From Loktanella sp. (GTDB taxonomy: Bacteria; Pseudomonadota; Alphaproteobacteria; Rhodobacterales; Rhodobacteraceae), in contig JAFPBO010000008.1 in NCBI GenBank assembly GCA_017390475.1, positions 62,001-126,000 on the forward strand: 64,000 nucleotides of DNA, written 5' to 3'. The translations under genes were made by a program, and so were the position numbers. The notes beneath the pieces were generated by a model. The model had not been told where the DNA came from, did no database searches, and saw only the letters and a list, made by a program, of their open reading frames with translations. Below are positions 16,454 to 43,740 of this stretch, in pieces. Position 1 is the stretch's first letter; each line of letters begins with the position of its first letter.

Positions 16454-19192
16454 ATGAATGATTTTTCCGAAGATGATGCCTTTGAAGCCGCCGCAATCCC
16501 GCTGAGCCAGCGCGCGATGGCGCGGCCTGCGATGCCTGCGGCGATGCCCTATCTGGACGGGCTGAACCCCGCGCAAAGGCAGGCGGTTGAGACGTTGGAT
16601 GGCCCGGTCTTGATGCTGGCAGGGGCAGGGACCGGCAAGACCAAGGCGCTGACATCACGGATTGCGCATGTTCTGGCGACGCGCTCTGCCCGCCCGCAAG
16701 AGGTGCTCGCGGTGACTTTCACCAACAAGGCCGCGCGCGAGATGAAGCATCGGATTGCCGCGCTGATGGGCGAGGCGGTGGAGGGGTTGCCCTGGCTCGG
16801 CACCTTCCATTCGGTCAGCGCCAAGCTGCTGCGCCGCCATGCCGAACTGGTGGGGCTGCAATCGAGTTTCACGATTCTCGACAGCGATGATCAGTTGCGC
16901 CTGCTCAAGCAATTGGTCGTGGCCTCTGATATCGACGAAAAACGCTGGCCGCCACGGATGCTCGCCGGGATCATTGATGGCTGGAAGAACAAGGCGCTGA
17001 CGCCTGACAAGGTGCCGGTCGCCGAAAGCGGTGCCTTTGATGGCAAGGGGATCGATCTTTATGCCGCCTATCAGCGGCGGCTGCGTGATCTGAATGCCGT
17101 CGATTTTGGCGATATCCTGCTGCATATGGTGACGATTTTCCAAAAGCACCCGGATGTGCTGCAGATGTATCAGACAAGGTTCCGTTATATTCTGGTGGAC
17201 GAATACCAGGATACGAACGTGGCCCAATATCTCTGGCTGCGCCTGCTGGCGGCGGGGCATAAGAATATCTGCTGCGTCGGCGATGACGACCAGTCGATCT
17301 ATGGCTGGCGTGGTGCCGAGGTCGGCAATATCCTGCGGTTCGAGGCGGATTTTCCCGGTGCCTATGTCGTGCGGCTTGAACAGAATTACCGTTCGACGCC
17401 CCATATCCTTGCTGCTGCGTCAGGTATTATTGCTGCGAATAAGGGGCGTCTGGGCAAGACACTATTCACCGCTGCTGAAGAGGGTGAGAAAGTCCGCCTG
17501 ATCGGCCATTGGGATGGCGAGGAAGAGGCGCGCTGGATCGGCGAGGAGATCGAGGCCCTCACAAGTGGAAGCTCAGCGATTGCGATGCGGCGTCAAAACG
17601 CCCGGTCTGAGCAGATGGTAAATGAGCTTAGACGACTTTCCGATGAAGATATATTGACGGGTGCGAATAGCCGAGAAGAACTTTTTAGAAAGCTTGAGAA
17701 CCACAAGAGCTTCCTCGCGGAGCAATCGAGAAGAGACTTGATATGGGAACTCAAGTCGCGATTGGATGAAGGGAAATCACTTGAAGCGGCTTTTCTTAAG
17801 TTTGGGCATAGTGAAATTGCTATTCTGGTGCGTGCCAGCCATCAGATGCGCGCCTTCGAGGATCGGTTTCTGACCATCGGTCTGCCTTACCGCGTCATCG
17901 GCGGGCCGCGATTTTATGAACGGATGGAGATCCGCGATGCGATGGCCTATTTCCGCCTCGCCGTGTCGCCCGCCGATGATCTGGCCTTTGAACGGATCGT
18001 GAATACGCCGAAACGTGGCTTGGGTAACGTAGCGCTCCGTAAGATCAGAGATATTGCAGATGACAATTCGATTTCTCAACTGCAAGCAGCACGGATGGTC
18101 TGTCAGGGCAAACTATTGGGGGGAAAGGGATTAAAAGAGCTGACGGAGTTGGTGTCTGGGCTAGACCGATGGCATCGTGTTACCCTTGGGTCTGTAAAGC
18201 AGGCGATAGTCGACGATGATGACAGTGTCATTGATGATGCTGTGCTTGGTAGCTTCGTGCAGGACGAGCCAGACTATGATCATATTGAATTGGCTCAGGT
18301 CATCCTTGAAGAAAGTGGCTATATTGATTCCTTCTTTGCGCCACAGACTGAAAAGGAAATCGCGCTAGGAGAGCCGCGAAGACACAAGGATGTCGAAGCC
18401 CCCGGACGGCTGGAAAACCTCAAGGAACTGGTTAAGGCGCTGGAGAATTTTGAAAACCTGCAAGGTTTCTTGGAGCATGTCAGCCTTATCATGGACAATG
18501 ATACCGAGGAACAGGGCGAAAAGGTCAGCATCATGACCCTGCACGCCGCCAAGGGGCTGGAATTTCCTTCGGTGTTCCTGCCGGGGTGGGAGGATGGTCT
18601 GTTCCCCTCGCAACGCTCGATGGATGAAAGCGGGCTGAAAGGCTTGGAGGAAGAACGCCGCCTTGCCTATGTCGGCATCACGCGCGCCGAAGAGCTTTGC
18701 ACGATCTCTTTCGCCGCCAATCGCCGGGTTTATGGCCAGTGGCAATCGCAGATGCCTTCGCGTTTCATCGATGAACTGCCCGCCGATCATGTCGAGGTGC
18801 TGACACCGCCCGGCCTTTATGGCGGCGCTTATGGGGCTGCGGGCATGGCGGCCAGTGCGTCCCCCGCGATCATGGGGGCGATGGGGTCGGACCTGCACCA
18901 AAAGGCGCATGATGCCGATGTCTATAATTCACCCGGCTGGCGGCGACTGCAAACCCGCAGCCAGCAGCGTGGCATGGCCGTTCCATCCGAGGCGCGGCAT
19001 ATGACGATTGACGCGACCGCTGTTTCGGCCTTCAGCGTGGATGACCGGGTATTCCATCAGAAATTCGGCTATGGCGCGGTGCTGGGGATCGAAGGCGACA
19101 AGCTGGAGATCGCCTTTGACAAGGCGGGCACCAAACACGTCGTCGCGCGGTTCATCGTCAGCGCCGATGCGGCGGATGATGTGCCGTTCTGA
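16454..19192 (+). CDS. uvrD: UvrD/PcrA-type DNA helicase with atypical inserted segments
   Basis: 912 aa, longer than E. coli UvrD (720 aa). SF1A motifs in order: Q/NPAQ motif (LNPAQRQAVE), Walker A (LAGAGTGKTKALTSRIAHVL), FTNKAAREMKHRI, Walker B (ILVDEYQDTN), GDDDQSIYGWRGA, QNYRSTPHIL, VIGGPRFYERMEIRDAMAYFRL, MTLHAAKGLEFPSVFLPGWEDGLFPS, and EERRLAYVGITRAEE. The C-terminal 50 residues (VFHQKFGYGAVLGIEGDKLEIAFD) form the RNA-polymerase-binding Tudor-like domain. It acts in nucleotide-excision repair and related processes. ATG 16454 was preferred to the adjacent GTG 16451. Two in-frame low-GC, rare-codon stretches (residues about 370-456 and 521-650) break the normal composition and add residues. 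Confidence 0.93.
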   Translation: MNDFSEDDAFEAAAIPLSQRAMARPAMPAAMPYLDGLNPAQRQAVETLDGPVLMLAGAGTGKTKALTSRIAHVLATRSARPQEVLAVTFTNKAAREMKHRIAALMGEAVEGLPWLGTFHSVSAKLLRRHAELVGLQSSFTILDSDDQLRLLKQLVVASDIDEKRWPPRMLAGIIDGWKNKALTPDKVPVAESGAFDGKGIDLYAAYQRRLRDLNAVDFGDILLHMVTIFQKHPDVLQMYQTRFRYILVDEYQDTNVAQYLWLRLLAAGHKNICCVGDDDQSIYGWRGAEVGNILRFEADFPGAYVVRLEQNYRSTPHILAAASGIIAANKGRLGKTLFTAAEEGEKVRLIGHWDGEEEARWIGEEIEALTSGSSAIAMRRQNARSEQMVNELRRLSDEDILTGANSREELFRKLENHKSFLAEQSRRDLIWELKSRLDEGKSLEAAFLKFGHSEIAILVRASHQMRAFEDRFLTIGLPYRVIGGPRFYERMEIRDAMAYFRLAVSPADDLAFERIVNTPKRGLGNVALRKIRDIADDNSISQLQAARMVCQGKLLGGKGLKELTELVSGLDRWHRVTLGSVKQAIVDDDDSVIDDAVLGSFVQDEPDYDHIELAQVILEESGYIDSFFAPQTEKEIALGEPRRHKDVEAPGRLENLKELVKALENFENLQGFLEHVSLIMDNDTEEQGEKVSIMTLHAAKGLEFPSVFLPGWEDGLFPSQRSMDESGLKGLEEERRLAYVGITRAEELCTISFAANRRVYGQWQSQMPSRFIDELPADHVEVLTPPGLYGGAYGAAGMAASASPAIMGAMGSDLHQKAHDADVYNSPGWRRLQTRSQQRGMAVPSEARHMTIDATAVSAFSVDDRVFHQKFGYGAVLGIEGDKLEIAFDKAGTKHVVARFIVSADAADDVPF
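17561..17820 (+). other. Low-GC in-frame patch 1 in uvrD
   Basis: Residues about 370-456 of the helicase. A hand count gives 122 G+C in 260 bases (47%), far below the flanks. Codons rare in such genomes are frequent: AGA four times, ATA twice, CTT repeatedly. The frame is open throughout. It sits between the helix ending EEIEAL and the conserved strand EIAILVRAS, where E. coli UvrD has only about 14 residues, so roughly 75 residues are extra. The inserted protein is charged and probably helical. Confidence 0.75.
18014..18400 (+). other. Low-GC in-frame patch 2 in uvrD
   Basis: Residues about 521-650. The hand count over 18001-18400 gives 198 G+C in 400 bases (about 50%). Rare codons AGA, CTA, TTA and ATA occur. 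It spans family-conserved parts (RGLGN..., LAQVILEESGYID) as well as extra acidic sequence (DDDDSVIDDAVLGSF and TEKEIALGEPRRHKD), so it looks partly like a replaced allele and partly like an insertion. The 190 bp between patches 1 and 2 have native composition. Confidence 0.7.
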
Positions 19193-19260
19193 CCAAAGCG
19201 GCTTGAGCTTGCCCGCCTGACACCGCCATACTGGCAGCGACCAGCAAAAAGGACGGCACA

Positions 19261-20937
19261 GTGGAAAGCGGCGGATCTGTCAGAACCGGTTTCAACAAAG
19301 CCGTCAGCCATGTGATCCAGTCCAGCCGCAGCGCATTGGCGGTGATCAAGGCCAAGGGGCCCACCCAGATCCAGTTCTGGTTCATCGCTTTGGCCATTGG
19401 CGTCGCTGCGGGCGGGGCCTCGGTCCTGTTCCGGCTGGGGATCGAGCTGATCCAGACCAGCGTTTATGGCACCGATGATATCCTGACCTTACACACATTC
19501 GCTGCCGGTCTGGCCTGGTATCAGGTGCTGCTGATCCCAATCTGCGGCGGGCTGGTGGTGGGGCTGATCCTGCACCGGTTCACCGATGACGGCCGGGTCC
19601 GGTCAGTTGCGGAAGTGATCGAAGGTGCCGCCCTTGCGCAAGGCCGGGTCGAGGTGCGGCGCGGCTTCGCCTCAACCGCCGCCTCGCTGGTCACCTTGTC
19701 CACCGGCGGGTCGAGCGGGCGCGAAGGCCCGGTCGTCCACCTGGCAGCCGTGCTCTCGACCATGGTCTGCCGTCTGATCAAGGCCAATGGCATCACGGGG
19801 CGCGATCTGTTGGGTTGCGCTGTCGCTGCTGCTGTTTCGGCCAGCTTCAACGCGCCGATCGCTGGGGCGCTTTTCGCGCTGGAGGTGGTGCTGCGCCATT
19901 TCGCAGTGCATGCCTTTGCGCCCATCGTCATTGCCTCTGCCGTGGGGACGGTGCTGAACCGGCTGGTGTTCGGCGATGTTACCGAATTTGTGCTGCCGGT
20001 TCAGAATGCGCTGACGTTCTATGTCGAATTGCCTGCGTTTTTGATGCTCGGTCTGATCTGCGGTCTGGTCGCGGTGGTGCTGATGAAATCAATCTTCTGG
20101 GCCGATGATTGCGCGAATTACGTGCAGGGCAGACTCCATGTGCCGCGCTATCTGCGCCCTGCGGTGGCGGGGGCCTTGCTTGGCGGGCTGGCGATCTGGT
20201 TTCCGCATATCATCGGCGTCGGCTATGAAACCACCACCGCTGCGCTGACCGGGTCGCTGCTGCTACATGAGGCGATCATTTTCGTCGTGCTCAAGGTCAT
20301 TGCCGTTGCCATCACCATCGGTGGGCGGATGGGCGGCGGGGTGTTTTCCCCCTCGCTGATGATCGGGGCGCTGACCGGGCTGGCCTTTGGCCTGATCGCC
20401 ACGGCGGTCTTTCCAAATGTCTCTGGTGAAGGATCGCTTTACGCGCTGGCGGGCATGGGTGCGGTTGCCGCCGCCGTGCTGGGGGCACCGATTTCCACCA
20501 CGCTGATCGTGTTTGAACTGACCGGCGACTGGCAGACCGGGCTGGCCGTGATGGTGGCGGTGTCCTTGTCCAGCGCCTTGTCATCACGGCTGGTGGACCG
20601 GTCGTTCTTTCTGACCCAACTCGAACGTCGCAATGTGCATCTGGCGGCAGGGCCGCAGGCCTATCTGCTGGCGACGATCCCGGTCACCGCCCATCTGCGC
20701 GACGCGCCGGAACAGAAATGCTGGGACCTCGTCGCGCGGGGGCTATACCTTGACCGGATCGCCACACTGGAACAGGCAATGCCATTGTTTGATCGCAGCG
20801 CAGAGCCGTTTTTACCGGTCGTCTCTCTGCGCGGCGAAGGCGACACACCGGAATTGCTGGGCGCGCTTTACAATATCGATGCGCTGCGCGCGATGAACCG
20901 CGCGCTGTCAGATACCGCCGCCGAAGAACATTCCTAG
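19261..20937 (+). CDS. ClC-type chloride channel/transporter
   Basis: 558 aa with about 10-12 membrane helices. GSSGREGPVVH near residue 153 matches the second ClC signature (G-R/K-E-G-P) and keeps the gating Glu, which in bacterial members couples Cl- to H+ exchange. GGRMGGGVFSPSLMIGALTG is the third anion-binding block. The first signature is STGGSSG rather than the usual GSGIP. About 100 C-terminal residues resemble a regulatory CBS-like tail. Start is GTG at 19261 with AAGGACGG 5 bp upstream. Its stop overlaps the stop of the convergent DUF427 gene. Confidence 0.9.
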   Translation: MESGGSVRTGFNKAVSHVIQSSRSALAVIKAKGPTQIQFWFIALAIGVAAGGASVLFRLGIELIQTSVYGTDDILTLHTFAAGLAWYQVLLIPICGGLVVGLILHRFTDDGRVRSVAEVIEGAALAQGRVEVRRGFASTAASLVTLSTGGSSGREGPVVHLAAVLSTMVCRLIKANGITGRDLLGCAVAAAVSASFNAPIAGALFALEVVLRHFAVHAFAPIVIASAVGTVLNRLVFGDVTEFVLPVQNALTFYVELPAFLMLGLICGLVAVVLMKSIFWADDCANYVQGRLHVPRYLRPAVAGALLGGLAIWFPHIIGVGYETTTAALTGSLLLHEAIIFVVLKVIAVAITIGGRMGGGVFSPSLMIGALTGLAFGLIATAVFPNVSGEGSLYALAGMGAVAAAVLGAPISTTLIVFELTGDWQTGLAVMVAVSLSSALSSRLVDRSFFLTQLERRNVHLAAGPQAYLLATIPVTAHLRDAPEQKCWDLVARGLYLDRIATLEQAMPLFDRSAEPFLPVVSLRGEGDTPELLGALYNIDALRAMNRALSDTAAEEHS

Positions 20938-40922: not shown

Positions 40923-41449
40923 TGGGCCGTATCCTGATCGTCGCAATGCTGGCGCTGGCTGTCGTCGTCGGTGGGGCCATGTATTATCTTCAGGTCTATG
41001 CCTATTACGAAGATGTCGTTGCAGAACCGGGGGACATCACCTTGCCGGTCACGCCGGCGGGTGGCGACCCGCTTGAAGTGCCGTTCAGCAATTTCCGTGG
41101 CATTGATTCCAACTCCAGCCCCTTGCGTTATCGTGCCTGTTTCGACACCGACATCAGCATGATCACCCTTGCGGCGGCGGCGCAGGCGCTGCCCTTTGCC
41201 GAACCGCGCGTCGCGCCGCGCTGGTTTGACTGCTTTGATGCCGCGCAGATCGGTGCCGATCTGCAAAGCGGTGCGGCCTCTGCCTATCTCAGCATTCCCA
41301 ATATCCAATATGGCATCGACCGTGTCATCGCCTTTTACCCCGACGGGCGCGGCTATATCTGGCACGAGATCAACCCTTGTGGTGAAGCCGTGTTCAACCG
41401 CAATCCTGCGCCTGAAAATTGCCCCGAACCACCCGAAAGCCTCCAATAA
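40922..41449 (+). CDS. DUF6446-like membrane-anchored protein between glyQ and glyS
   Basis: 175 aa, starting in the glyQ stop (ATGA at 40922) and ending in TAATG shared with glyS, so all three are translationally coupled. One N-terminal membrane helix (ILIVAMLALAVVVGGAMYYLQVYAYYEDV) is followed by a periplasmic or cytoplasmic domain containing SSPLRYRACFDT, PRWFDCFDAAQIGADLQSGAASAYLS, and C-terminal PCGEAVFNRNPAPENCPEPP. Four Cys could form disulfides. The family is known only in Rhodobacterales as far as I recall, and has no assigned function. Conserved placement inside glyQS is its most informative feature. Confidence 0.75.
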   Translation: MGRILIVAMLALAVVVGGAMYYLQVYAYYEDVVAEPGDITLPVTPAGGDPLEVPFSNFRGIDSNSSPLRYRACFDTDISMITLAAAAQALPFAEPRVAPRWFDCFDAAQIGADLQSGAASAYLSIPNIQYGIDRVIAFYPDGRGYIWHEINPCGEAVFNRNPAPENCPEPPESLQ

Positions 41450-43740
41450 TGCCTGATCTGCTGATTGAACTCTTTTCCGAGGAAATCCCGGCCCGGATGC
41501 AAGCCCGCGCCGCCGATGATCTGAAAAAACTGGTCACCGATGGGCTGGTCGAGGCTGGGTTGACCTATGCCGGTGCTGCCGCGTTTGCTACGCCGCGCCG
41601 GTTGACGCTGGCGATTGACGGGCTGACCGGCGAAAGCCGTGCGGTGCGCGAAGAACGCAAAGGGCCAAAGGTCGGCGCGCCGGATGCGGCGATTGACGGG
41701 TTCCTGCGCGGGGCGGGGATCAGCCGCGAGGCGCTGGAAATCCGCGATGATAAGAAGGGCCAGACATATTTCGCCGTGATCGAAAAACCGGGGCGCAAGG
41801 CGGCAGAGATTATTGCCGAGGTGCTGGATGCGACCGTGCGCAATTTCCCTTGGCCGAAATCCATGCGCTGGGGGACGGGCAGCCTGAAATGGGTGCGCCC
41901 GCTGCATTCCATCATCTGTCTGTTGTCGGATGAAGCCGGGGCAGAAATTGTGCCGCTGACCATCGACGGGATCACCGCCGGGCGGACCACCTATGGCCAC
42001 CGGTTCCTTGCGCCTGCGGCGATCACAGTCAACGGCTTTGACGATTACGAGGCAAAGCTGAAACGCGCCCATGTCATCCTGCGTGCCGAAGAACGCGCGG
42101 AAACGATCTGGAATGACGCGACCCAGCAAGCCTTTGCGCGCGGTCTGGAACTGGTCGATGATCGCGGGTTGCTGGCCGAGGTGGCGGGGCTGGTCGAATG
42201 GCCGGTCGTGCTGCTGGGCCGGATTGACGATGCCTTTCTGGGCCTGCCGCCCGAGGTGCTGCAAACCTCGATGAAGGAGCATCAGAAGTTTTTCTCGGTC
42301 CGCAACCCCAAGACGGGGCGGATCGAATGTTTCGTGACGGTCGCCAATATGGAAACCGCCGATAAGGGCGCGACCATTCTGGCGGGCAATCAAAAGGTGC
42401 TGGCAGCGCGGCTGTCGGATGCGAAATTCTTTTGGGAGAATGATCTGCGGACGGTCAAGGCCGAGGGTCTGGAAGGCATGGGGGCCGGGCTGGCCAATGT
42501 GACCTTCCATAACAAGCTGGGCTCGCAGGCCGACCGGATCGCGCGGATTGCGGCGCTGGCGCGCGAGATTGCGCCGCATGTGGGTGCCGATCCTGATCTG
42601 GCAGAACAGGCGGCGAAGGTCGCCAAGGCCGATCTGCAATCGGAAATGGTTGGGGAATTTCCTGAATTGCAGGGGCTGATGGGGCGGTATTATGCCGCCG
42701 CTGCCGGGCTGGATGAGGCCGTTGCCGCCGCCTGTCAGGACCATTATTCGCCGCTGGGGCCGTCGGATGCCGTACCGACCGCGCCGGTATCGGTGGCCGT
42801 GGCGCTGGCGGACAAGATCGACACGCTGACCGGGTTCTGGGCGATTGACGAGAAACCGACCGGGAGCAAGGACCCCTTTGCGCTGCGCAGGGCCGCGTTG
42901 GGGGTTATTCGGTTGGTGTTGGAGAATAATGTTTCTCTACAACTGTCAGAGATTATTGCGACGTCATTTTTGAACCTTATTTGGCCACTTCTTCAAGATG
43001 GACGAATGAGATTTATGGGCAAGATTTGGGATGACCCAGAGCATGAATTGATACCACGTCACTTTTTCGGGGGTGGATATGGACCAGTTGAAGGCGATTT
43101 TATTGGTTGGGATCGTTTCGACGAGGCGTGTGGAGCAGGGAAGTGTCTATGCTTAGAGGATCAAACAACTGAGAACTCTCCGTCGTGGCGTCCTGTTGCT
43201 CGTGGTGTTGTGCTGAAAGACCTCATCTCCTTCTTCCACGACCGCCTCAAGGTCTACCTGCGTGACCAAGGCATCCGTCATGACATCATCGACGCTTGCA
43301 TCGCGATGCCCGGGAATGACGATCTGACCTTGCTCGTCAAACGCGCCCGCGCCTTGGCGGCAACGCTGGCCACGGATGATGGCGAAAACCTGATCCAGGG
43401 GTTCAAGCGGGCCAATAATATCCTGACGCAGGCCGAGGCCAAGGATGGCGTCGAATATTCCTTTGGCGCGGACCCGAAATTTGCCGAAGATAATGCCGAA
43501 AAGGCGCTTTTCGCTGCGTTGGATGCTGCAGATGCAAACATCCTGCCCGCGATGAAAGCCGAGGATTTCAGCACCGCGATGACCGCTATGGCGGCACTTC
43601 GTGGGCCGATTGATGCTTTTTTCACCGCTGTGCAGGTCAATGACGACCGGCAGGTGATCCGGCGCAACCGGCTTAACCTCTTGTCGCGGATCAGGAAAAC
43701 CTGTCTGTCGGTGGCTGACCTGACGAAAATCGACGGCTAG
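41449..43740 (+). CDS. glyS: Glycine--tRNA ligase beta subunit with a low-GC patch
   Basis: 763 aa, longer than E. coli GlyS (689 aa). PDLLIELFSEEIPARMQARAADDLKKLV is the usual start. Mid-protein VKTSMKEHQKFFSV-type block reads VLQTSMKEHQKFFSVRN; SDPFALRRAALG-type block reads KDPFALRRAALGVIRLVL. The C-terminal anticodon-binding helices include NDRQVIRRNRLNLLSRIR. It binds tRNA-Gly and supports GlyQ. The segment from residue 485 to about 588 has low GC, rare codons and roughly 60 extra residues. Starts in the stop of the preceding gene. Confidence 0.95.
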   Translation: MPDLLIELFSEEIPARMQARAADDLKKLVTDGLVEAGLTYAGAAAFATPRRLTLAIDGLTGESRAVREERKGPKVGAPDAAIDGFLRGAGISREALEIRDDKKGQTYFAVIEKPGRKAAEIIAEVLDATVRNFPWPKSMRWGTGSLKWVRPLHSIICLLSDEAGAEIVPLTIDGITAGRTTYGHRFLAPAAITVNGFDDYEAKLKRAHVILRAEERAETIWNDATQQAFARGLELVDDRGLLAEVAGLVEWPVVLLGRIDDAFLGLPPEVLQTSMKEHQKFFSVRNPKTGRIECFVTVANMETADKGATILAGNQKVLAARLSDAKFFWENDLRTVKAEGLEGMGAGLANVTFHNKLGSQADRIARIAALAREIAPHVGADPDLAEQAAKVAKADLQSEMVGEFPELQGLMGRYYAAAAGLDEAVAAACQDHYSPLGPSDAVPTAPVSVAVALADKIDTLTGFWAIDEKPTGSKDPFALRRAALGVIRLVLENNVSLQLSEIIATSFLNLIWPLLQDGRMRFMGKIWDDPEHELIPRHFFGGGYGPVEGDFIGWDRFDEACGAGKCLCLEDQTTENSPSWRPVARGVVLKDLISFFHDRLKVYLRDQGIRHDIIDACIAMPGNDDLTLLVKRARALAATLATDDGENLIQGFKRANNILTQAEAKDGVEYSFGADPKFAEDNAEKALFAALDAADANILPAMKAEDFSTAMTAMAALRGPIDAFFTAVQVNDDRQVIRRNRLNLLSRIRKTCLSVADLTKIDG
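42901..43213 (+). other. Low-GC in-frame patch in glyS
   Basis: The hand count over 42901-43200 gives 138 G+C in 300 bases (46%). Codons CTA (twice), TTA, ATA and AGA occur in a region where the rest of glyS hardly uses them. The frame stays open. It lies between RAALGVIRLVLE and DLISFFHDRLKVYL, a variable stretch in the family. The extra sequence is aromatic-rich (GGGYGPVEGDFIGWDRFDE) and holds three Cys in CGAGKCLC. Confidence 0.75.

What the first reader, a model, noticed from the sequence alone, without database searches (positions are those of the whole stretch)
17561..17820. In-frame low-GC, rare-codon insertion in the UvrD/PcrA helicase
Seen in sequence: 260 bases at 47% GC (122 of 260 by hand count) inside a gene whose flanks are clearly GC-rich. 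AGA codons occur four times and ATA twice. The frame is open and the segment adds about 75 residues where E. coli UvrD has about 14, between EEIEAL and EIAILVRAS. All helicase motifs around it are intact. Inference: an inserted or imported piece tolerated by an essential-type enzyme. If the same element occurs in other genes of this organism it would be a class of in-frame mobile or mosaic element, comparable in concept to Rickettsia palindromic elements.
Basis: partly seen in the sequence, partly recalled or inferred. Interest (0 to 1): 0.7.

Follow-up and report, generated by a model that had tools for sequence, protein, structure and literature searches.

The report
Swappable loop module in UvrD helicase
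A DNA-repair helicase carries an extra in-frame domain, written in foreign-looking DNA, that appears to belong to a pool of alternative pieces exchanged between related bacteria at the same loop of the same enzyme.

Summary
It is neither an isolated insertion nor a repeat. It belongs to a family of loop modules (65-92 aa) at one site in domain 2A of UvrD in Rhodobacteraceae; the alternative is a 15-16 aa loop. Modules are scattered: 2 of 56 genomes of the genus (two different types), 12 of 394 sampled over the family, and only the window among 385 sampled over the class. Several sister species lack them; a single clade is rejected (AU p 0.005). All 22 parsed modules have too little third-position G/C for their own gene (z -3.0 to -10.8). 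The protein is constrained, and in 13 genomes checked it is the only UvrD orthologue. The window gene carries a second low-GC imported tract in domain 2B. Another essential gene in the window, glyS, shows the same phenomenon more strongly. Best reading: recurrent import, probably by homologous recombination between conserved helicase motifs. The function (a changed contact surface, perhaps escape from an antagonist) is inferred, not shown.

The parts
16454..19192 (+). uvrD/pcrA, 912 aa; the only UvrD orthologue found in the genome
17561..17818 (+). site 1: low-GC in-frame module in domain 2A (aa 370-455; 71 residues more than G016), predicted helical (H375-378, 383-397, 407-415, 424-438)
17381..17398 (+). 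left conserved anchor QNYRST (aa 310-315), candidate recombination flank
   Evidence: invariant columns in A2; role inferred from identity profiles
17828..17869 (+). right conserved anchor VRASHQMRAFEDRF (aa 459-472); identity with G016 is back at 91% over aa 456-500
18026..18403 (+). second low-GC, low-identity tract in domain 2B (aa about 525-650)
18179..18277 (+). site 2: acidic linker (aa 576-608), absent from G016 and most of the genus members aligned
18329..18388 (+). aa about 626-645: longer replacement of the otherwise conserved WQNDKTPEAPGRL stretch
41449..43737 (+). glyS, glycyl-tRNA synthetase beta: second gene with the same kind of replaced loop
42928..43227 (+). glyS alien low-GC loop; holds the lowest 80-codon synonymous-GC window of the scan

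Best explanation
The insert is one allele of an exchangeable loop module at a fixed site in domain 2A of UvrD, circulating among Rhodobacteraceae. SHOWN: in the 117 parsed UvrDs the site is either a 15-16 aa loop or a 65-92 aa module of one diverse family; the module is low in synonymous GC in all 22 parsed hosts, scattered over the tree, single copy in the window's genome, in the only UvrD orthologue of the 13 genomes checked, and constrained as protein. INFERRED: it enters by homologous recombination or gene conversion between near-invariant helicase blocks on either side (QNYRST left, VRASHQMRAFEDRF right), replacing the short loop, in some pairs with 30-70 codons to its left; transformation, gene transfer agents or phages are possible carriers. 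The modelled protein carries a small helical bundle on the 2A surface. Most likely role (inferred, about 0.35): it changes a contact surface of UvrD, so that a phage, plasmid or toxin protein no longer binds, or so that coupling to RNA polymerase or repair partners is altered; repeated replacement then keeps the site foreign in composition. The window gene took a second import in 2B.
For: Loop length 15-16 aa in 95 and 65-92 aa in 22 of 117; 18 changes on a quick motor-domain tree, at least 11 forced by starred branches; AU test rejects one clade, p 0.0046, lnL difference 687 (quick tree). Plus/minus neighbours: window/G016, L031/L035, L032/L072, L033/L053, L034/L074. Survey: 2 of 56 in the genus, window included; 12 of 394 over the family, window included; 1 of 385 over the class, the window itself. 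GC3 of 22 of 22 modules below amino-acid-matched expectation, z -3.0 to -10.8, median -6.0. Close cores can carry different module types: L038/L039 core 94%, module 32%; window/G022 86% and 28%. Second-position divergence 0.24-0.38 against third 0.62-0.75 inside modules. In four of five plus/minus pairs identity is lower just left of the insert than in most of the gene, and recovers directly on the right. No neighbouring gene clearly marks long alleles (15 long, 65 short loci). One UvrD orthologue in each of 13 module genomes. glyS in the same window repeats the pattern.
Against: No donor with native-composition modules was found: one module type was sought in plasmids, three in phages (25, 60, 61), two in viral contigs (26, 91). 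Module identity still correlates weakly with core identity (rho 0.25, 24 of 2000 permutations as high). In the window/G016 pair the left flank (83% at aa 341-369) is no lower than in the plus-free control pair L006/L002 (83%). Third positions in modules are near saturation, so tracts and dates cannot be read. Clustering on the tree is slightly better than shuffled (18 against mean 20.5, 33 of 500 as low), and 41 of 114 forks are weak. GC3 is not normal in every other variable region: of short-loop genes, 7 of 36 at site 2, 11 of 95 at aa 790-860 and 4 of 95 at aa 501-575 have z below -2. Function has no direct evidence. Module pLDDT is 65-85, pTM of the models 0.55 and 0.39.
Confidence: 0.65

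Rival explanations
1. Neutral permissive loop: site 1 tolerates in-frame foreign DNA, and composition merely reflects AT-rich donors; no selection for variation.
For: Surface loop between a helix and a strand; most genomes sampled have no module.
Against: Modules form one family with shared residues (R11, R15, E22, L60 invariant, G3, N13 and R25 nearly so in 16 aligned members); second positions are constrained; few genes showed such replaced segments.
Confidence: 0.2
2. Low GC is selected in the module itself (codon choice for slow co-translational folding, or an RNA-level signal), not a mark of import.
For: 22 of 22 modules are low whatever the host GC, and third positions are near saturation, so the family is old.
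Against: No unusual RNA folding of the window's module (z -0.57). In glyS the recurrent inherited loop type at the same place is mostly normal in GC3 (11 loops, median z -0.5, two below -2), while 32 other loops there have median -5.25.
Confidence: 0.15
3. Repetitive in-frame mobile element comparable to Rickettsia palindromic elements.
For: In frame, low GC, tolerated in an important enzyme.
Against: One copy in the genome by profile and DNA; no inverted repeat inside it; all 12 family hits printed lie at the same place after NYRST in uvrD.
Confidence: 0.02
4. Genus-wide native extension of UvrD.
For: An open frame only.
Against: 54 of 55 other genomes of the genus have no hit, and GC3 is foreign.
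Confidence: 0.02
5. Decayed mini-intein or translational bypass element.
For: Insertion in a helicase gene, a common intein host (recalled).
Against: No intein or other convincing domain hit; no stops inside any of the hits listed; not in a conserved motif.
Confidence: 0.03

Closest known systems
UvrD/PcrA (E. coli UvrD 2IS1, PcrA 1PJR)
   Same: Motor core aligns in three blocks
   Different: No module at the 2A loop of E. coli UvrD; 2B of the window gene is partly replaced
Mosaic alleles of contested genes (HsdS target-recognition domains, neisserial surface proteins; recalled)
   Same: Variable segment exchanged between conserved flanks, patchy over the tree
   Different: Here a cytosolic housekeeping helicase, with a present-or-absent module of foreign composition
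Rickettsia palindromic elements (recalled)
   Same: In-frame insertion tolerated in a coding gene
   Different: Single copy, not palindromic, one fixed site
Lineage-specific insertion domains, as SI1 of RNA polymerase beta (PMC8318588, passages read)
   Same: Extra domain in a core enzyme, possible interaction site
   Different: SI1 is called lineage-specific there; here sister species differ in presence and type

Membership tests
UvrD/PcrA SF1 helicase | UvrD_N, UvrD_C and tudor domains | tested here: met
   Pfam above cut-off; long invariant blocks in A2
UvrD/PcrA SF1 helicase | NCBIfam PcrA equivalog score | tested here: not met
   739.4 bits against cut-off 911.2; best stretch ends at aa 374, where the insert begins. 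The name rests on Pfam and on the syntenic G016 gene
Rickettsia-palindromic-type element | dispersed related copies in the genome | tested here: not met
Rickettsia-palindromic-type element | palindromic, stable hairpin | tested here: not met
Rickettsia-palindromic-type element | in-frame insertion | tested here: met
Intein | splicing-domain homology | tested here: not met
   no such hit in Pfam, NCBIfam or PDB; 86 aa is short for an intein (recalled)
Mosaic allele exchanged by recombination | discordance of segment and gene tree | tested here: met
   a weak positive correlation remains
Mosaic allele exchanged by recombination | identified donor of near-identical DNA | tested here: not met
   closest module held is 57-59% at aa level (Sagittula salina L032)
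Antagonist-escape (target-site variation) locus | altered sensitivity to a named phage, plasmid or toxin | not testable with these tools
   needs experiment

The most novel reading that the evidence does not exclude
Rhodobacteraceae keep a shared pool of low-GC, in-frame loop cassettes that are repeatedly swapped into fixed loops of a few indispensable enzymes (UvrD, glycyl-tRNA synthetase beta), as target-site variation against phages, plasmids or toxins: a moving-target defence written inside housekeeping genes.
Probability: 0.3. Interest if true: 0.88.

Novelty: new variant of a known kind. Interest (0 to 1): 0.68.

Why it matters
Core repair and translation enzymes are usually taken to evolve mainly by descent. 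Here one loop of UvrD and one of glycyl-tRNA synthetase are replaced again and again by foreign-looking coding DNA, so that species of one genus carry loops with no detectable likeness. If selection drives it, these loops mark where something attacks or binds essential enzymes, a question that loop swaps can test directly. It also warns against using these genes whole as phylogenetic markers.

Tried and rejected
Repeat, hairpin and own-genome copy searches were negative. Family, PHROG and PDB searches of the module gave only weak hits taken as chance (best DUF4268 at E 0.026). No module was found in plasmids (window's type only), phages (three types; the three Bacteroides phage rows have E 0.3) or viral contigs (two types; 90, the glyS loop). 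Full-length UvrD matches in plasmids and phages gave no sign of the module. A linked neighbour gene was not established (one family in 4 of 15 long and 0 of 65 short loci, not followed up). Between uvrD and clcA in G016 lie about 28 kb of division and cell-wall genes (names recalled from the sequences), not an obvious mobile element. Literature: eight searches, of which I saw the capped listings and starts of abstracts, showed no report of such modules; open-licence papers only. Fold searches never ran (131, 132, 138 busy).

Limits of the counts. The 117-gene set is enriched for long alleles: one search kept the best 80 of 586 and ranks contiguous matches first, and L116-L127 were fetched by their module. 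In some searches at most 14 candidates per genome were scored, so these are lower bounds. L041 (long loop) was lost by the parser and is not among the 22; seven duplicate loci were dropped. A low-GC patch scan finds site-1 patches in 18 of 22 long and 0 of 95 short genes, but a 15-aa loop cannot fill its 30-codon window, so the short genes are a weak control; the better controls are the other variable regions and the glyS loop types. In glyS 48 of 59 loci parsed (11 not); 5 loops under 34 aa were left out of the native/alien comparison. The 121 ORF pairs include ORFs that are probably not genes, and its filter did not pick up the 2B tract of uvrD; the scan of 655 kb of G016 does not pick up G016's own 42-aa glyS loop. 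Both are therefore lower bounds. One search stopped at an error after 10 of 27 GC rows; one search replaced that part. Alignment A2 holds 79 of the 80 named loci (L094 left out), A3 40 of them besides the first row's set; one search scanned 10 of 48 glyS loops.
Full report
OBSERVATION. The patch is as described. Window 17561-17820 has 122 G/C in 260 bases, 4 AGA and 2 ATA codons, in an open frame. The gene is uvrD/pcrA, 16454-19192, 912 aa. All nine AGA/ATA codons of the gene lie either in this patch or in a second stretch of domain 2B, and 0.16% of 260-base windows in the 64 kb are this poor in G/C.

COMPARISON WITH THE GENUS. All 60 genomes of the first relative search have a match. The closest, G016, is 95% identical over aa 1-376, 80% over 450-575 and 90% over 609-912, and lacks both extra segments. 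In nucleotides, identity with G016 is 82-91% in bins up to aa 300, 78% and 83% over 301-340 and 341-369, and 91% over 456-500 directly after the insert; it is 80% over 501-530, falls to 52-62% over 531-650 and returns to 87%. I read this as two foreign tracts: the site-1 module and a 2B tract (aa about 525-650) with an acidic linker and a longer replacement near aa 626-645. Against same-genus pairs the window is normal at 301-369 (mean 0.88 against 0.90) but low at 501-575 (0.68 against 0.85) and 609-665 (0.66 against 0.93).

A FAMILY OF MODULES. Among named Rhodobacteraceae, several UvrDs carry a long segment at the same place, with a shared start (consensus GxSxxAKxRxNxRSxxxxQExDRL) and then several types. 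In 117 parsed genes the loop is 15-16 aa in 95 and 65-92 aa in 22, with nothing between. Less biased frequencies, window included: 12 of 394 genomes drawn over the family; 2 of 56 in the genus, the second (G022) having a different type; 1 of 385 genomes drawn over the class, the window itself. In the genus of G321 1 of 4 genomes has it (taken as Sagittula because its module equals that of Sagittula salina L032). All 12 family hits were printed and lie after NYRST in a uvrD frame. In 13 of 13 module genomes the module gene is the only UvrD orthologue at E 1e-20; G022 also has a 37% helicase.

SCATTER AND EXCHANGE. On a quick tree of motor domains the long state needs 18 changes, at least 11 forced by starred branches, against a shuffled mean of 20.5 (33 of 500 shuffles as low), so it is barely clustered. 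Holding all 22 together costs 687 log-likelihood units (AU p 0.0046). Neighbours on the tree that differ: window and G016, L031 and L035, Sagittula salina and marina, Shimia haliotis and SK013, Cognatishimia activa and maritima; others, such as the two Roseicyclus and the two Ruegeria, both have modules but of different types. Module identity follows core identity only weakly (rho 0.25, 24 of 2000 permutations as high): the two Roseicyclus cores are 94% alike and their modules 32%; window and G022 have 86% and 28%. In five plus/minus pairs nucleotide identity is 71-83% over aa 341-369 and 81-92% over 456-500. The control pairs without modules have 83% and 89% in the left bin, so the left drop is clear in L031, L033 and L034, modest in L032 and absent in the window pair.

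COMPOSITION. Against the codon usage of the rest of its own gene, matched by amino acid, GC3 of the module is depressed in 22 of 22 genes, z -3.0 to -10.8, median -6.0. Other variable parts of the same genes are mostly normal, with exceptions (L122 site 2 z -6.8; L038 and L126 site 2; the window's aa 501-575 z -2.9). In short-loop genes 7 of 36 at site 2, 11 of 95 at aa 790-860 and 4 of 95 at aa 501-575 fall below -2. A free scan over the 117 genes gives 40 patches, 22 of them at site 1, in 18 of 22 long genes. Two further sites take occasional long segments: aa about 134 (L082 z -8.6, L125 -2.3, L111 -1.7; three shorter ones normal) and site 2 (L122 -5.8, L098 -4.7, L115 -3.6, L025 -3.4, L097 -2.1; L086 normal).

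CONSTRAINT AND STRUCTURE. Within module types mean divergence at codon positions 1, 2, 3 is 0.39-0.42, 0.24-0.38, 0.62-0.75, against 0.10-0.15, 0.08-0.09, 0.42-0.52 in the flank aa 250-365 (one type rests on a single pair). The module is constrained as protein, less than its flank, and third positions are more diverged than in the flank. That suits a pool older than the host splits, though saturation and composition blur it. AlphaFold2 places it as helices 375-378, 383-397, 407-415 and 424-438 between helix 355-371 and strand 455-459 of 2A (block pLDDT 65-85, pTM 0.55). A type-B module (L054) also comes out all-helical with a similar order, in a poorer model (pTM 0.39). Domain names follow E. 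coli UvrD (recalled) through the alignment.

NOT A REPEAT ELEMENT. One copy in the genome by profile and DNA (four other matches of 16-21 bases at E 0.9 or more), no inverted repeat inside it, ordinary folding, no convincing hit in Pfam, NCBIfam, PHROGs or PDB, none in plasmids, phages or viral contigs for the types tried. Neighbouring genes do not clearly distinguish 15 long from 65 short loci.

A SECOND GENE. In the same window glyS has an alien loop at 42928-43227: 103 aa in the window, 42 in G016 between near-identical anchors, GC3 0.39 against 0.72 expected. Of 59 glyS loci examined, 48 parsed. Eleven loops form one recurrent type, presumably native, with mostly normal GC3 (median z -0.5, two below -2). 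The 32 other loops of 34 aa or more have median z -5.25, 26 of 32 below -2 by printed values (Mann-Whitney p 1e-5). The 42 loops over 35 aa fall into 25 clusters at phmmer E 1e-3, the 25 of the window's genus into 21; remote kinship may be missed. Three non-native clusters link the genus with other genera (L152/L162/L203, L156/L165/L212, L151/L189). So the site by itself does not impose low GC3. Modules of uvrD and loops of glyS are not detectably related (best E 0.12). Among 121 ORF pairs of the window's contig and G016 only uvrD and glyS passed a filter for internal replaced segments, and 655 kb of G016 gave only 7 ORFs at z -4.0 to -4.6, none examined further. Both filters are insensitive to shorter cases.

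MECHANISM. Shown: alternative modules at a fixed loop, scattered distribution, foreign composition, protein constraint. Inferred: transfer by homologous recombination between the conserved blocks on both sides. Gene transfer agents are said to be well conserved in Rhodobacterales (PMC9836097, start of abstract in the listing only) and would be one carrier. The role is inferred: the 2A domain of PcrA is protected on binding RNA polymerase near the RNA exit, and MutL acts through 2B (PMC8318588, passages read), so both imported tracts of the window gene lie in partner-contact domains. Escape from an antagonist would explain the diversity in both uvrD and glyS, but no antagonist is known to me or was found.

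NOVELTY. The listings of eight searches of open papers showed no described case of low-GC cassettes recurrently exchanged into fixed loops of UvrD or glycyl-tRNA synthetase. The mode (mosaic exchange between conserved flanks) is known; the target genes and the present-or-absent foreign modules are the new part.

Noticed in passing
window 42928-43227 (glyS, 41449-43737): Glycyl-tRNA synthetase beta carries a roughly 100-aa low-GC loop; 25 parsed loops of one genus fall into 21 sequence clusters.
   Followed up: partly
L237 (G022 glyS): In G022 the glyS frame is broken inside the loop into two overlapping frames of 602 and 203 aa; a real split or a sequencing error.
   Followed up: no
L133 2496-4730 (G016 glyS): G016 differs from the window at a second place near the glyS N terminus, with a longer alternative segment; window-like sequence occurs in G022 and G815.
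   Followed up: no
L082, L111, L125 UvrD near window-equivalent aa 134: A further insertion site in UvrD with 54-66 aa in the segment, very low GC3 in L082 (z -8.6).
   Followed up: partly
L025, L115, L122 UvrD site 2: Unusually long, low-GC3 segments (66-89 aa) in place of the 2B linker.
   Followed up: partly
window 19192-19261 against L134/L135: In G016 about 28 kb with division and cell-wall genes lies between uvrD and the chloride channel gene; in the window they are adjacent.
   Followed up: no
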